Shown: piece by piece, positions 25,331-30,473 of the stretch
Layout of the letters: every line of letters begins with the position of its first letter
How positions within the stretch are numbered: position 1 is the first letter of the stretch
Source: Rhodococcus sp. W8901
Lineage (GTDB): Bacteria; Actinomycetota; Actinomycetes; Mycobacteriales; Mycobacteriaceae
Direction of reading: 5' to 3'
NCBI RefSeq assembly: GCF_013348805.1
Contig: NZ_CP054690.1
Span: 620,001-684,000 of the forward strand
Length of the DNA: 64,000 nucleotides
Program-made: the position numbers and the translations under genes
Notes under the pieces: model-generated
The model's input: the letters and a program-made list of their open reading frames with translations, nothing else
Database searches by the model: none
Told to the model about the DNA's origin: nothing

Positions 25331-25338
25331 CTGTTCTT

Positions 25339-25388
25339 CACTGTCGGGGTGGCGGGATTTGAACCCACGACCTCTTCGTCCCGAACGA
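25339..25388. repeat. 50-bp attachment-site repeat, left copy (tRNA-Pro 3' end fragment)
   Basis: This 50-bp sequence is identical to 30395-30444. Positions 25344-25388 equal the last 45 nt of tRNA-Pro (T arm, acceptor 3' strand, part of the anticodon stem). The sequence diverges abruptly at 25389, so this is only the 3' part of a tRNA, as made when an integrase recombines at a tRNA gene. Confidence 0.9.
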
Positions 25389-25574
25389 CCTCACCTGGGC
25401 AGACGACAGGATATGGAGGCGTGAGCTGCATGAGTGAAAACGCCGTAACCAGCGAACTGGATGGTCAGCTTCGTGAGTGAGATGTGCCGAGTAATGGCGG
25501 TGCTGCGGACCCACTCGCTTACCTGCGATCGAAAGCGACTCACGAGGATGCAGGCGACTGGGTGTACCCGGCCA

Positions 25575-26140
25575 TCGGGTTGGTTGCAGTCGGCTGATCG
25601 GCGGTAGTCCTTCGAGTGCGCTGTGGCGTCGTCGAGTGTTGTAGTACTCGAGCCAGGGTGCAAGCGCGTCGGCGCGTTCGGTGTTGCTGGTGAAGACCTG
25701 CCGGTAGGCCCACTCGGATTGCAGGGTCCGATTGAGGCGTTCGACCTTCCCGTTCTGCCACGGGCAGTGCGGTGTGATGAACTTCTGTCGGATGCCGTGC
25801 TCAGCGGAGACCTCCCGTAGCGACCACCGGTAGGCCCAGGCGTTGTCGGTCATCAGCCGCTCGATGCGGGTGATGCCGTGGCGGGCGAAGTAGTCGATCG
25901 CACGGACCAGGAAACCCGCACAGGTGGAACCCTTTTCGTCCGGGAGGATCTCCGAGTAGGCGAGCCGGGAGTGATCGTCGATGAGGGAGTGGACGTAGTC
26001 GAACCCCACCTTCGTCGAGTAGTCCCGGATCCGGTGCTCTCGGCCATGGGCACGCCATCCGCCACCGTCGGGAATCCGGCCGAGCTTTTTGACATCCATG
26101 TGCACCAACAATTCGTCTGCGGCCAGGTCGCTGTTGTCAG
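25575..26140 (-). pseudogene. IS481-family transposase remnant
   Basis: The frame encodes DVKKLGRIPDGGGWRAHGRE, DDHSRLAYSEILPDEKGS, MTDNAWAYR and WQNGKVERLNRTLQSEWAY, which is the DDE catalytic core of IS481-type transposases with all three acidic residues. The N-terminal helix-turn-helix half, about 110 residues, is missing: homology begins at about 26140 exactly where the YbaB-like gene ends. The frame runs without its normal stop toward the attachment repeat. No terminal inverted repeats were recognised, so it is a dead fragment. Confidence 0.75.
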
Positions 26141-26532
26141 ATGCTCCGGAGGATCGACCTGGTGGCGTAGTACGCGTCCTCGTCCGCATCGGGTCCAGGG
26201 TGGTAGCGCGGCGTAGTGGGGGCGGTTGTGCGTGTTCCGGCGATGACCTGTGCGACTCGTGGGTCGGCGGCCAACTCGCCACGAAGGGCCTGGGCTGCCT
26301 CCTCTGCTTCGGTGCATGCTGCGCGGTGGGTGGCGGTGACGATCGCCGCGAGCGTGGTGGCGCCTCCCGCGAGGGCGGTGTCGGTGATGGTCAGTGCGGT
26401 GATGCGCCCGGCGGCGTCGACTTCGGCGGTGACGTGCCCGCCCGCGGATTGGGCCCGTCCGCGCACGAGTGTCACCGCCTCGTGGACTCGGCGTGCTTTC
26501 ACGGCGAGGTCGTCGAGCGGTGCGCTGGTCAT
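26137..26532 (-). CDS. YbaB/EbfC-like protein of a type VII-associated cassette
   Basis: A 131-residue protein with the YbaB/EbfC fold layout: a long first helix (LDDLAVKARRVHEAVTLVRG), beta strands (GHVTAEVDAAGRITALTITD) and a second helix. Paralogues of this fold accompany ESX/type VII loci in actinobacteria, such as EspL. ATG 26532 follows GGGAG. The acidic tail ends ATRSILRSI exactly where the IS481 remnant begins, so the native C-terminus may have been cut. It is the last gene of the cassette. Confidence 0.65.
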   Translation of the reverse strand: MTSAPLDDLAVKARRVHEAVTLVRGRAQSAGGHVTAEVDAAGRITALTITDTALAGGATTLAAIVTATHRAACTEAEEAAQALRGELAADPRVAQVIAGTRTTAPTTPRYHPGPDADEDAYYATRSILRSI

Positions 26533-26594
26533 GGTGTCGCTCCCGGAGGTATCGGTCGGGTGTGCTGGGTGGGTGGCAATCGGGGGGCGACGCG

Positions 26595-27158
26595 TTACGG
26601 CGTCTGTTCGGTCCGCTGGGCAGGGAGTCGGCACCCGGTTCGGGCGCTGACGAGTGCGGCGACCTGTGTGCCGAGGTGGATTTGGCTGCCGTCGTCGCTG
26701 GTGAGTACCACGTCGTGATCGCCCGGCTTGTCGACGCGGACGTTCAGCTGGGTGATCCCGAGGGACGCGGCGATGTCACGGGCCGCCTGGAGCACGCGGG
26801 GCCAGTCGGCGTCGGGAATCGGGGTGGCGGAGACGTAGTTCGGTAAGTCGATCTCGAGTCCGTCGGTTTTGCCGAAGGCGCCGCCGCAGCTGGACTGGGT
26901 CCGCTGGCGACGCCATTCCCACTGCAGTTCTGGTGCGATGGTTGTTGCGGCGTTGGCGATCTGCACCACCGCGTCGGTGATCTGCTTTTCGGTGTCCTCG
27001 AGTGAGGGTCGGGTGGGCAGGAGGGCTGCGGCGGCGGCGATTTCCTCGTCGGTGTGGTTGTAAGGGTTGCCCATGGTGTCGAGGTCTCCGCATCCGGTGG
27101 TCAGGATTGTCACGGTTGTTGCGATCGCCGCCAGCAGCGGCAGGGTGTGTCGGTTCAC
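26595..27158 (-). CDS. LppA-like lipoprotein
   Basis: A 187-residue lipoprotein. The signal peptide ends in TILTTGC (Cys23). The mature part matches the LppA/LppB/LppJ-type mycobacterial lipoproteins: NPYNHTDEE, RPSLEDTEKQI, KTDGLEIDLPNYV, IPDADWPRVLQAARDIAASL, KPGDHDVVL and GCRLP are recognisable blocks. It should be anchored on the outer face of the membrane. Its GTG overlaps the upstream hydrolase stop by 4 nt. In M. tuberculosis a lipoprotein gene of this kind (lppJ) sits beside a DUF1023 hydrolase (Rv2079), the same pairing as here. Confidence 0.72.
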   Translation of the reverse strand: MNRHTLPLLAAIATTVTILTTGCGDLDTMGNPYNHTDEEIAAAAALLPTRPSLEDTEKQITDAVVQIANAATTIAPELQWEWRRQRTQSSCGGAFGKTDGLEIDLPNYVSATPIPDADWPRVLQAARDIAASLGITQLNVRVDKPGDHDVVLTSDDGSQIHLGTQVAALVSARTGCRLPAQRTEQTP

Positions 27159-28849
27159 AAGCGCACCGCCTGTTCGGGTAGTCCGGCCACGATCACGGCC
27201 ATGTTGTATCCCGACATTCGAAGCTCCCCGTTGTCGCCTTGCTGTGAGTATTGACTGTGCTTGTGGACGCCGTCTCGTGTGACGCCGTCGGGGCTGGTGC
27301 CTGCGTTGGTGGAGAGCTGTTCGAAGTCGGAGGTGCTGGGGTCGGGTCCGAACCGGTGCGTCTTGCCGATTTCGGTGACGACGCGGTCCTCGTCGGCCTC
27401 CATCACGTAGCCGTGTCCTTCGGCGAGGCCCAGGTCGGATTCGTCGTCGGCGTTGATGCCGGGCGATCCATAGAACACGGCGTCGTCGATGGGTTGGCCG
27501 GGACCGGGGTCCTGGAGTGCCAGACCGGTGGTCAGGGACCCGTAGGAGTGCCCGAGCGCGGTGATGTGCGGGTCCGGCTGCGTGGACGCGACGTCGAGGC
27601 CGTCGTAGAACCCGGCGAGCTTCGCGGCGCCCGCGTTCGCGCGGTCCGTCTGGGCGACGTCCAGTCCGCCGCGTGCGTGGTCCGCGACCACGTTCGACGA
27701 CCCGTCGAGCTGCGGTGGTTCGTATCCCAACCAGGCGATGCTCGCCACTGTCTCGTCAGCACGGCCGGCGCGATCGAGCTGTTCCTCCGCCTCGGACTGC
27801 AGGTATGTCGCTTCATTGACCATGCCGTTGAAGGAGTCGTCGATGTTGGTGTTCAGCCCGGGGGTGGTGACGGAGATGTGGTCGGCGGTGTCGGGGTCGC
27901 CGACGGCGAAGGCGGCCATGCCGCGTTCGCCGGACTGCAGGTCGAGCAGCATCAGGCGGCCGTCTGGGTTGTCGGCCACGATGCCCTCGATCTCGTCGAG
28001 GTCACGTAGTTTCTGCTCGGTGTACCAGAGCGCGGCGTCGTCGTTGGTGAACGTGCCGCCGAAGAGGTTGTCGTCGAGGTTCGCCTGCAGGCGGTCGCGT
28101 TCGGCTTCGAGACGGTCGCGTTCGTCGTCGAACCGGTTGACGTTCGCCTCGTGTCGTACGGCGGAGGGGATGCCGTCGCGGTTGCCGACCCAGTCCGGGT
28201 GCTCGTCGATGATCTGACGTCGCTGTTCCTCGGTGAGCGAGTCCCAGTACTTCTTGTTGTCGGCGGCGGTGGCGCCGGGTGCCGGCTCGGGGAGCGCGCC
28301 GGCTCCGAGGTTGCCCGCTCGGGCCTCGCCGGCGTCGCCGAGCTGGGCGGTCGCGGCGTCCAGGGCGGCACCGGCGCGGGCGTCGAGTTCGCCGACTGTC
28401 GCGAGGGCGGGGATCAGCCGGGCCTCGAGCACGGTCGCTTGTTCGCCCAGTTGTGCCTGAATCAGCATGTCGGCGACCGGGTTGCCGCTGACGAACGGTG
28501 GGGCGCTGACCCGTCCGTCGTCGGCGACCGCGAATCCGGAGGCGATCGCCTCGTCGGCGATCGAGAGGGCGGTGAGTCGGGCGGGACCGATCGAGGCCGC
28601 GGCATTCGTCAATGCGTCGGCCTGGGCGGTGACCGCTGTCGCGATGCGGCGTCCGGCTTCCTGTTCCGAGGCGGACCGCGACGAGGCGGCCGCGGCGGCG
28701 GTGCCGTGCCAACTCGACATGGCGGTGTCGACATGTGATCCGGCCGCCTGCATCGCGTCGCCGAAGGTGCGGTTCGCTGCGGCGACGGCGGTGCCGGCGG
28801 CGGCGAGGAGGTCCGGTTGCCAGGTGCGGAGCTGAGACAGGGTGACCAT
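27155..28849 (-). CDS. WXG-like/DUF1023 alpha/beta hydrolase
   Basis: A 564-residue two-part protein. Residues 1-180 are alpha-helical and resemble WXG100/ESX substrates (AMSSWHGTAAAAASSRS). Residues about 330-545 form a DUF1023 alpha/beta hydrolase with nucleophile elbow ALGHSYGSLT near 434 and a late His in GVTRDGVHKHSQY. A charged linker (residues 230-280, rich in E, R and D) joins them. Such WXG-hydrolase fusions are candidate type VII effectors. ATG 28849 abuts the stop of the ESX target gene, and the end overlaps the lipoprotein start by 4 nt. Substrate unknown. Confidence 0.75.
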   Translation of the reverse strand: MVTLSQLRTWQPDLLAAAGTAVAAANRTFGDAMQAAGSHVDTAMSSWHGTAAAAASSRSASEQEAGRRIATAVTAQADALTNAAASIGPARLTALSIADEAIASGFAVADDGRVSAPPFVSGNPVADMLIQAQLGEQATVLEARLIPALATVGELDARAGAALDAATAQLGDAGEARAGNLGAGALPEPAPGATAADNKKYWDSLTEEQRRQIIDEHPDWVGNRDGIPSAVRHEANVNRFDDERDRLEAERDRLQANLDDNLFGGTFTNDDAALWYTEQKLRDLDEIEGIVADNPDGRLMLLDLQSGERGMAAFAVGDPDTADHISVTTPGLNTNIDDSFNGMVNEATYLQSEAEEQLDRAGRADETVASIAWLGYEPPQLDGSSNVVADHARGGLDVAQTDRANAGAAKLAGFYDGLDVASTQPDPHITALGHSYGSLTTGLALQDPGPGQPIDDAVFYGSPGINADDESDLGLAEGHGYVMEADEDRVVTEIGKTHRFGPDPSTSDFEQLSTNAGTSPDGVTRDGVHKHSQYSQQGDNGELRMSGYNMAVIVAGLPEQAVRL

Positions 28850-29155
28850 CTAGATCTCCCCGGACTTGATATCGAGCTGCTGCCGGAAGGCGCGCTCGGC
28901 ACCGTCGTAGACGTGGGCGTTCGCCTCCGCGTTCGCGGACATGTCGCGGAGCCGCTCGGCTGTGTCGCGGTGGGACCGGAGCAGCGGGGCCCCGGCGCGG
29001 GCCGCGGCCGCACCGACCGACGACCCTGGCATTGCGCCTGCTGCGGCGTCGATCGGACCGGACGGGTCGATACCCGAGATCCGATCGGCTTCGACCGTCA
29101 ACGATGCAGCGAGCGAACGCAACGCCTCTGTATCGACACCCAGCTGATCTCCCAA
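28850..29155 (-). CDS. ESX-1 secretion-associated/type VII target-like protein
   Basis: A 101-residue all-helical protein of the DUF2580/ESX-secretion-target type: LGVDTEALRSLAASLTVEAD, AAARAGAPLL, then a second helix with HRDTAERLRDM and ending AFRQQLDIKSGEI. The TTG at 29155 is preferred (AAGGA and GGGGGT upstream); the frame is also open from a GTG at 29197. Its stop TAG touches the ATG of the hydrolase gene. It is the first gene of the four-gene cassette. Confidence 0.68.
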   Translation of the reverse strand: MGDQLGVDTEALRSLAASLTVEADRISGIDPSGPIDAAAGAMPGSSVGAAAARAGAPLLRSHRDTAERLRDMSANAEANAHVYDGAERAFRQQLDIKSGEI

Positions 29156-29340
29156 AGCACCCCCAGTTCCTTCTGTGCCATGTGCGGTACCGCGCACCGC
29201 CGCTCATACGGCGCTCACAGCGGAGCCCTGTTTGGTTTGACGCAGCCCAGCGGTGAACGGTTCCATCACAATTACTGCAGGTTGCGATGCCTGTTCGGTC
29301 GTGGTCAGGTGAGTACGATCTGGCTCTGGGCGCCGTCTTG

Positions 29341-29885: not shown

Positions 29886-30314
29886 TGCTGGCGGGCCCGG
29901 TATGTCGATGACACTGGCCGTGAACACTCCAAGGCATTCGGCAAGAAGGTCGACGCGCAGTCGTGGCTCGATACGGCCACTGCGTCGTTGGTGCAGGGAT
30001 CCCATGTCGCGCCCTCTGCTGGCAAGGGGACTGTCGGGGAGCTTGGCGCCCGGTGGCTTGCTGCGAACGGGCACGTCAAAGCGACGACCGATGCAACTCG
30101 TCGGGTGACGTCGTCGGCCCATGTGACCCCGCACGATCTGCGGCACATGGCCGCGTCGCCGGCGATCAGTGCCGGCGCCAACCCCAAGGCGGTCCAGAAG
30201 ATGCTCGGACACGCGAAGGCGAGCATGACCCTCGACGTGTACGCGGACCTATTCGAGGATGACCTCGAGGCCGTGGCCGAGGCCCTCGATGTCGCGGTGC
30301 GTGCAGCCGAGTGA
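29886..30314 (+). pseudogene. Tyrosine integrase remnant with internal deletion
   Basis: The frame opens with WRARYVDDTGREHSKAF and DAQSWLDTATASLVQGSHV, the N-terminal AP2-like and core-binding region of actinophage-type integrases. After ATTDATRRV it jumps to TPHDLRHMAASPAISAGANP and then MLGHAKASMTLDVYADLF, the C-terminal catalytic HxxR...GH...Y region. About 200 residues between, including the first catalytic Arg, are missing. There is no proper start codon either. It directs toward the right repeat, the normal position beside an attachment site. Confidence 0.75.

Positions 30315-30394: not shown

Positions 30395-30473
<79 letters not shown>

What the first reader, a model, noticed from the sequence alone, without database searches (positions are those of the whole stretch)
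26137..29155. Compact four-gene type VII-associated cassette inside a tRNA-Pro element
An ESX-target protein, a WXG-like/DUF1023 hydrolase with an intact GHSYG nucleophile, an LppA-like lipoprotein and a YbaB/EbfC-like protein are arranged as one leftward transcription unit with abutting or overlapping starts. M. tuberculosis has a related lppJ/Rv2079 pairing, but here it travels as cargo on an integrative element. It may be a mobile effector, interbacterial or phage-defence module that borrows the host ESX apparatus. The hydrolase part looks catalytically complete. That it acts as an effector is inference.
Basis: partly seen in the sequence, partly recalled or inferred. Interest (0 to 1): 0.72.

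Follow-up and report, generated by a model that had tools for sequence, protein, structure and literature searches.

The report
Mobile secreted-lipase toxin with lipoprotein antidote
A small once-mobile piece of DNA in a Rhodococcus-like bacterium carries four genes that look like a toxin-export kit: a fat-splitting enzyme, its export partner, a helper and a membrane-anchored lipoprotein that probably protects the cell making it; such kits are known from prophages of mycobacteria, and this one suggests a job for a lipoprotein family whose role is unclear.

Summary
Four leftward genes (26137-29155) lie on a 5,056-bp island bounded by an exact 50-bp repeat of the tRNA-Pro 3' end. In 13 relatives the island is not seen beside that tRNA; three show an exact empty site. 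The integrase and an IS481 transposase are fragments.

The hydrolase (PF06259) has a WxG helical hairpin and a complete Ser435-Asp488-His531 triad. The EspC-like partner carries an ESX export motif. The lipoprotein is an LppA (157.7 bits; fold match to M. tuberculosis LppA). A ~3.2-kb unit recurs at other loci. A complete ESX locus lies elsewhere in the genome.

Best explanation: an ESX-exported, lipase-type polymorphic toxin with lipoprotein immunity and a YbaB-like chaperone. This is the kind called PT-Imm/PEST in M. abscessus prophages, some of which carry the same toxin domain followed by an annotated 'LppA lipoprotein'. Across relatives the lipoprotein tracks the toxin domain and the partner tracks the export domain.

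Against: one relative keeps the hydrolase but has lost most of LppA; about half of the hydrolases examined have no such neighbour. Toxicity and immunity are untested. No sign of phage defence. Verdict: a new variant of a known kind, with a testable role for LppA proteins.

The parts
25339..25388 (.). left attachment repeat (copy of the tRNA-Pro 3' end)
   Evidence: exact 50-bp direct repeat
25587..26120 (-). IS481-family transposase fragment (C-terminal part only), abutting the cassette end
   Evidence: NF033577 positions 127-284 of 284, 186 bits, below cut-off 224; coordinates derived from residues 55-232 of ORF 25338-26282
26118..29309 (-). cassette unit: the ~3.2-kb stretch shared with the second copy in this genome, whose flanks are unrelated
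   Evidence: blastn, 87% identity to L005; nearly the same ends with L009 and L011
26137..26532 (-). YbaB/EbfC-fold protein, likely 131 aa from ATG 26532; proposed substrate chaperone
   Evidence: PF02575 34.2 bits; start by comparison with the second copy
26595..27158 (-). LppA-family lipoprotein, 187 aa; proposed immunity protein
27155..28849 (-). WXG-like hairpin plus Abhydrolase_8 lipase-fold domain, 564 aa; proposed ESX-exported toxin
   Evidence: PF06259 168.9 bits; triad; model and fold search
28850..29155 (-). EspC-like small helical partner, 101 aa, with YxxxE motif
   Evidence: PF10824 21 bits, below cut-off 23.5; motif in 15 of 15 aligned partners, read by eye
29239..29264 (-). conserved GGAACC-N14-TGCGTC element upstream of the cassette, ECF-sigma-like promoter candidate (recalled consensus)
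   Evidence: alignment of 8 cassette upstream regions; one match in window, 0.11 expected
29988..30314 (+). tyrosine integrase C-terminal fragment, 108 aa
   Evidence: PF00589 45 bits, profile positions 114-168 of 172
30395..30444 (.). right attachment repeat, overlapping the tRNA-Pro 3' end
30399..30473 (-). tRNA-Pro (CGG), integration site
   Evidence: ARAGORN

Best explanation
The cassette is an ESX (type VII) polymorphic-toxin module carried on the remnant of a tRNA-Pro integrative element. The EspC-like protein and the N-terminal WXG-like hairpin of the hydrolase pair as a composite export signal and are exported by the host ESX machine, with the YbaB-like protein acting as a cytoplasmic chaperone. 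The C-terminal lipase-fold domain acts outside the producing cell on an ester bond of envelope lipid. The LppA lipoprotein, anchored on the outer face of the membrane, binds this domain and protects the producer. Shown here: genes, triad, motifs, island with empty site, cassette recurrence, complete ESX locus, co-variation of toxin domain with lipoprotein and of export domain with partner, prophage relatives. Inferred: export, lipid substrate, toxicity, immunity, chaperone role, and whether the target is a rival bacterium or a host cell.
Against: G008 keeps the hydrolase with its nucleophile, and the partner, but its LppA is cut to 59 aa and no PF16708 match is found in that genome. G011 carries the cassette but gave no EccB match. 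67 of 132 hydrolases have no adjacent 120-260 aa same-strand gene. Of 86 proteins with both domains the script called the downstream gene soluble in 29 and absent in 6. The N-domain also keeps some correlation with the lipoprotein (partial 0.40 at n 55, 0.12 at n 21). The EspC match is below its cut-off. Enrichment and correlation tests do not correct for relatedness beyond thinning. Co-variation would also arise for an enzyme and a required cofactor. No toxicity, export or binding data.
Confidence: 0.68

Rival explanations
1. The hydrolase is an ESX-exported, non-toxic envelope or nutrient lipase, and LppA is its cofactor: a lipid shuttle, foldase or surface anchor. The pair is carried as a metabolic or host-interaction trait.
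For: LppA co-varies with the lipase domain, as a cofactor would. PF06259 is found in 188 of 201 family genomes, and 67 of 132 hydrolases examined lack such a neighbour. G008 keeps the enzyme without LppA.
Against: The N-domain is shared with unrelated C-termini that have other neighbours. The cassette recurs at other loci and has relatives on prophages annotated as polymorphic toxins. A cofactor should be kept where the enzyme is kept, yet G008 lost it.
Confidence: 0.2
2. The cassette is decaying cargo of a defunct element, with no present function at this site.
For: Integrase and IS481 are fragments; another cassette locus in the same genome has a truncated hydrolase.
Against: All four ORFs, triad, lipobox, export motif and the upstream promoter-like element are intact here.
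Confidence: 0.08
3. The cassette is a phage-defence module carried by a satellite-like element.
For: Location on a tRNA element; the PEST authors list viral defence among untested possibilities (PMC10654092, passages).
Against: No PADLOC model matches any of the four proteins at E <= 0.01; an exported enzyme with an outward-facing lipoprotein does not suit intracellular defence (inference).
Confidence: 0.03

Closest known systems
PT-Imm / PEST cassettes of Mycobacterium abscessus prophages and satellites (PMC8092301, PMC10654092)
   Same: Small ESX partner, large protein with N-terminal WXG domain and variable C-terminus, immunity gene directly downstream; on prophages or PICIs, next to att junctions. 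Several immunity proteins are predicted lipoproteins (PMC8092301, passage). Two prophage records opened carry the same PF06259 toxin domain followed by a gene annotated 'LppA lipoprotein'.
   Different: Here the partner is EspC-like, not WXG100. The lipoprotein is PF16708 LppA; BLAST finds no clear likeness to the prophage one, and profile comparison is split: 5.9% with a narrow and 95.6% with a broad alignment. A YbaB-like gene is added, and the carrier is a small remnant.
TslA/TilA lipase toxin of Staphylococcus aureus (PMC10730906)
   Same: Works alike: T7SS-exported lipase, small helical partners, immunity lipoprotein outside the membrane.
   Different: TslA has the lipase domain first and belongs to the Bacillota T7SS. 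Homology was not tested.
M. tuberculosis LppA (PDB 2v7s)
   Different: No function known to me; its neighbouring genes were not examined (recalled to include a hydrolase).
EspH/EspL, YbaB-like ESX-1 proteins (PMC6107294, PMC6319747)
   Same: YbaB fold beside ESX substrates; the EspH authors propose dedicated chaperones (passages).
   Different: No direct sequence comparison was made here.

Membership tests
PT-Imm / PEST cassette | small ESX partner gene directly upstream | tested here: met
   EspC-like 101 aa, abutting; YxxxE motif. It is EspC-like at 21 bits, below the 23.5 cut-off, not WXG100
PT-Imm / PEST cassette | large protein with N-terminal WXG-type helical domain | tested here: met
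   W47-x-G49, tryptophan invariant in 15 rows; helices 12-46 and 50-103 in the model. Pfam WXG100 itself is below cut-off, 15 vs 27.3 bits
PT-Imm / PEST cassette | the N-domain is combined with varied C-terminal domains | tested here: met
   38 relatives without the hydrolase domain; of 10 scanned, 3 have TPR_23
PT-Imm / PEST cassette | downstream gene tracks the toxin domain | tested here: met
   partial r 0.77-0.84 given the N-domain
PT-Imm / PEST cassette | carried on a prophage or integrative element near att | tested here: met
   between att repeats, 0.75 kb and 1.2 kb away; remnant integrase only
PT-Imm / PEST cassette | toxicity relieved by the immunity protein | not testable with these tools
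   needs bench work
LppA (PF16708) | profile match over cut-off, lipobox, LppA fold | tested here: met
Abhydrolase_8 (PF06259) | profile match and catalytic triad | tested here: met
   168.9 bits vs 20.5; S435, D488, H531
TslA-type lipase toxin | lipase domain N-terminal to the helical targeting domain | tested here: not met
   order is reversed here: hairpin 12-103, hydrolase from about 298
YbaB/EbfC | profile match over cut-off | tested here: met
   34.2 bits vs 25.5
YbaB/EbfC | DNA binding | not testable with these tools
   needs bench work
known anti-phage defence systems (PADLOC) | match to a defence-protein model | tested here: not met
   0 of 4 proteins at E <= 0.01
M. tuberculosis Rv2079/lppJ pair | orthology and shared gene order | not tested

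The most novel reading that the evidence does not exclude
The LppA lipoprotein family (PF16708 and its distant kin next to Abhydrolase_8 genes), including the M. tuberculosis members, is a family of outer-face immunity lipoproteins against ESX-exported lipase toxins: an actinobacterial counterpart of T6SS Tle/Tli (recalled) and of TslA/TilA that spreads as a cassette between prophages, islands and chromosomes.
Probability: 0.4. Interest if true: 0.75.

Novelty: new variant of a known kind. Interest (0 to 1): 0.55.

Why it matters
LppA of M. tuberculosis has had a crystal structure since 2008 (2v7s); no title or abstract start listed by my searches gives it a function. If the LppA-like proteins paired with these hydrolases are immunity proteins, then ESX systems of actinobacteria deliver lipase toxins, a family of orphan lipoproteins gets a direct test, and mobile elements are seen to spread toxin cargo that relies on the host's ESX machine. 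It also extends PT-Imm cassettes from M. abscessus prophages to a Rhodococcus-like genome, with a different export partner and a proposed YbaB-like chaperone.

Tried and rejected
Phage defence: no PADLOC hit. PHROGs: no hit for the four cassette proteins; only the integrase fragment matched. IMG/VR scan with the hydrolase: 3 loci, not followed up. Foldseek against viral models: one hit at E <= 0.001, without a name. Plasmids: 25 records match the hydrolase, none with 80% coverage; three opened, two with a 174-196 aa gene overlapping the hydrolase stop by 4 nt. Ends of the cassette: no terminal repeats seen by eye that would explain its movement. Sequence searches of solved structures for LppA and the hydrolase gave nothing usable; the fold search found LppA. 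LppA against the prophage lipoprotein by BLAST: nothing clear; profile comparison 5.9% and 95.6%, the second with a broad alignment that mixes subfamilies, so weak. Prophage gene 12 (158 aa) has no Pfam match and is not like the YbaB protein by BLAST. In one search, 13 of 29 partner ORFs picked by script lacked the motif, and several look misread; one search repeats the test on the 16 with it. The gene picker used is my own GC3-based script and misplaces some genes and starts.
Full report
What is there. The window lies in a 5.71-Mb single-contig genome. Between an exact 50-bp repeat at 25339-25388 and 30395-30444 lies a 5,056-bp island. The right repeat is the 3' end of tRNA-Pro(CGG), 30399-30473. 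I looked at the same tRNA in 13 relatives, about 1.4 kb beyond the tRNA in each. The island is not seen in any. In three (L110, L114, L115) the whole left flank joins the tRNA end with nothing between; the other sites have partial or no left-flank match, and L121 has 141 bp resembling the island's integrase end, a scar of another element. The island holds a 108-aa integrase fragment, an IS481 transposase fragment and the four genes, so it is a remnant.

Mobility of the cassette. The island copy matches a second copy in the same genome at 87% over 3.2 kb, and copies in other genomes at 78-90%. In L005, L009 and L011 the match starts about 150 bp before the EspC-like gene and stops just after YbaB; in L013 it covers the genes only. 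Flanks are unrelated except that L011 and L012 share one site. Of nine loci of this subtype seen, five carry all four genes (island, L005, L009, L011, L013); L012 has a damaged YbaB, L209 a truncated LppA, and L010 and L211 are cut by contig ends. An upstream element GGAACC-N14-TGCGTC is kept in all eight aligned upstream regions and occurs once in the window, 0.11 expected.

Export. The tryptophan of WxG is invariant in 15 aligned N-domains, and all 15 aligned partners carry YxxxD/E (read by eye). The genome has one EccB match, in a locus with EccCa/Cb, EccD, EccE, mycosin and two WXG100 proteins, all above cut-off, beside ribosomal genes; ESX-4-like by recalled synteny. EccB is found in 13 of 14 genus genomes; the exception, G011, carries the cassette.

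Toxin-immunity logic. The N-domain family occurs in 101 of 121 family genomes. In my collected loci, 38 distinct proteins have it without the hydrolase. For 26 of them a downstream gene was readable: 18 multi-TM and 8 lipoprotein-like, after I moved three that the script called lipoprotein but that have 3-4 TM segments, and added two whose lipobox the script missed; 7 were at edges and 5 had none. Of 86 proteins with both domains, the script called the downstream gene lipoprotein in 39, single N-terminal TM in 5, multi-TM in 1, soluble in 29, none in 6, edge in 6. In a separate count (132 hydrolases after dropping 2 fragments from 134; drawn from part of the matches) 63 had an adjacent same-strand gene of 120-260 aa: 46 with a lipobox and 9 more with an N-terminal hydrophobic segment, against 8 of 54 control pairs (Fisher p 2e-10, not corrected for relatedness); 2 were at edges and 67 had no such gene. 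Distances: lipoprotein follows toxin domain given N-domain (partial r 0.84 at n 55; 0.77 at n 21 after thinning, permutation p 0.001), and N-domain given toxin domain less (0.40, 0.12); partner follows N-domain given toxin domain (0.96 at n 16) and not the reverse (-0.26). This is what a toxin with cognate immunity and an export partner predicts; a cofactor would also fit the first half.

Known relatives. The hydrolase hits four phage records, all M. abscessus prophages annotated 'polymorphic toxin protein'. The two opened have a WXG protein, the toxin with PF06259, and 'LppA lipoprotein'. A sibling cassette in the genus (L053: EspC-like, hydrolase, lipoprotein, YbaB) is 34% identical to the prophage toxin and 30% to its lipoprotein. 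PMC8092301 (passages) describes such PT-Imm cassettes next to att junctions, with several lipoprotein immunity proteins. PMC10654092 (passages) names them PEST and reports that plasmids with two cassettes lacking the imm gene did not transform M. smegmatis efficiently. PMC10730906 (abstract and Discussion) describes TslA/TilA. PMC6107294 and PMC6319747 (passages) describe YbaB-like EspH and EspL, the first proposing chaperones. In this genome one further YbaB-like gene sits beside an EspC-like gene, and in another genome one follows a hydrolase directly (L215, L258).

Results against. G008 keeps hydrolase and partner but has LppA cut to 59 aa and no PF16708 match. One relative, L197, has lost its nucleophile, and its downstream gene lacks a signal peptide, consistent with joint decay, but it is a single case. 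Another locus in this genome (L004/L007) keeps EspC-like, lipoprotein and YbaB genes with a truncated hydrolase. PF06259 is found in 188 of 201 family genomes, and about half of the hydrolases examined are not in such pairs.

Literature limits. Searches for DUF1023, Rv2079/lppJ, Rv2542/lppA/lppV, LppA with polymorphic toxin, and PF06259/PF16708 listed no paper whose title or abstract start assigns LppA an immunity role. Most listed papers were not opened; of PMC8467076, PMC11878206 and PMC13209886 I saw only one or two passages each. Subscription papers are not held.

Verdict. A new variant of PT-Imm/PEST cassettes: a lipase-type toxin, EspC-like partner, LppA immunity, YbaB-like helper. Interest 0.55.

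Noticed in passing
29239-29264 (-): ECF-sigma-like element GGAACC-N14-TGCGTC kept upstream of eight aligned cassettes.
   Followed up: partly
L209 8240-10836 (G008): Cassette with hydrolase and partner kept but LppA cut to 59 aa by a deletion.
   Followed up: yes
L197 2778-4469: Hydrolase with the nucleophile serine replaced (GHDYG), followed by a 153-aa gene without a signal peptide: possible joint decay.
   Followed up: no
L004 1230-2889 (own genome, G000:C1:5087k; also L007): Cassette locus with EspC-like, lipoprotein and YbaB genes but a truncated hydrolase; its lipoprotein is of the M. abscessus prophage type.
   Followed up: partly
L217 7242-8216; L247; L270 and others: The same N-domain with a short glycine-rich C-terminus followed by a four-TM gene: likely another toxin type (L068 and L060).
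   Followed up: partly
L252, L268, L263: The same N-domain followed by an EspA-like TPR_23 domain and a 250-270 aa lipoprotein-like gene.
   Followed up: partly
L215 7534-8380; L216 6389-7035: Further YbaB-like genes in this genome, one beside an EspC-like gene.
   Followed up: partly
G020 and G047: Two genomes with 15 and 9 Abhydrolase_8 matches; G092 has neighbouring pairs about 3.5 kb apart.
   Followed up: no
25587-26120: IS481 transposase fragment abutting the cassette edge at about 26118.
   Followed up: partly
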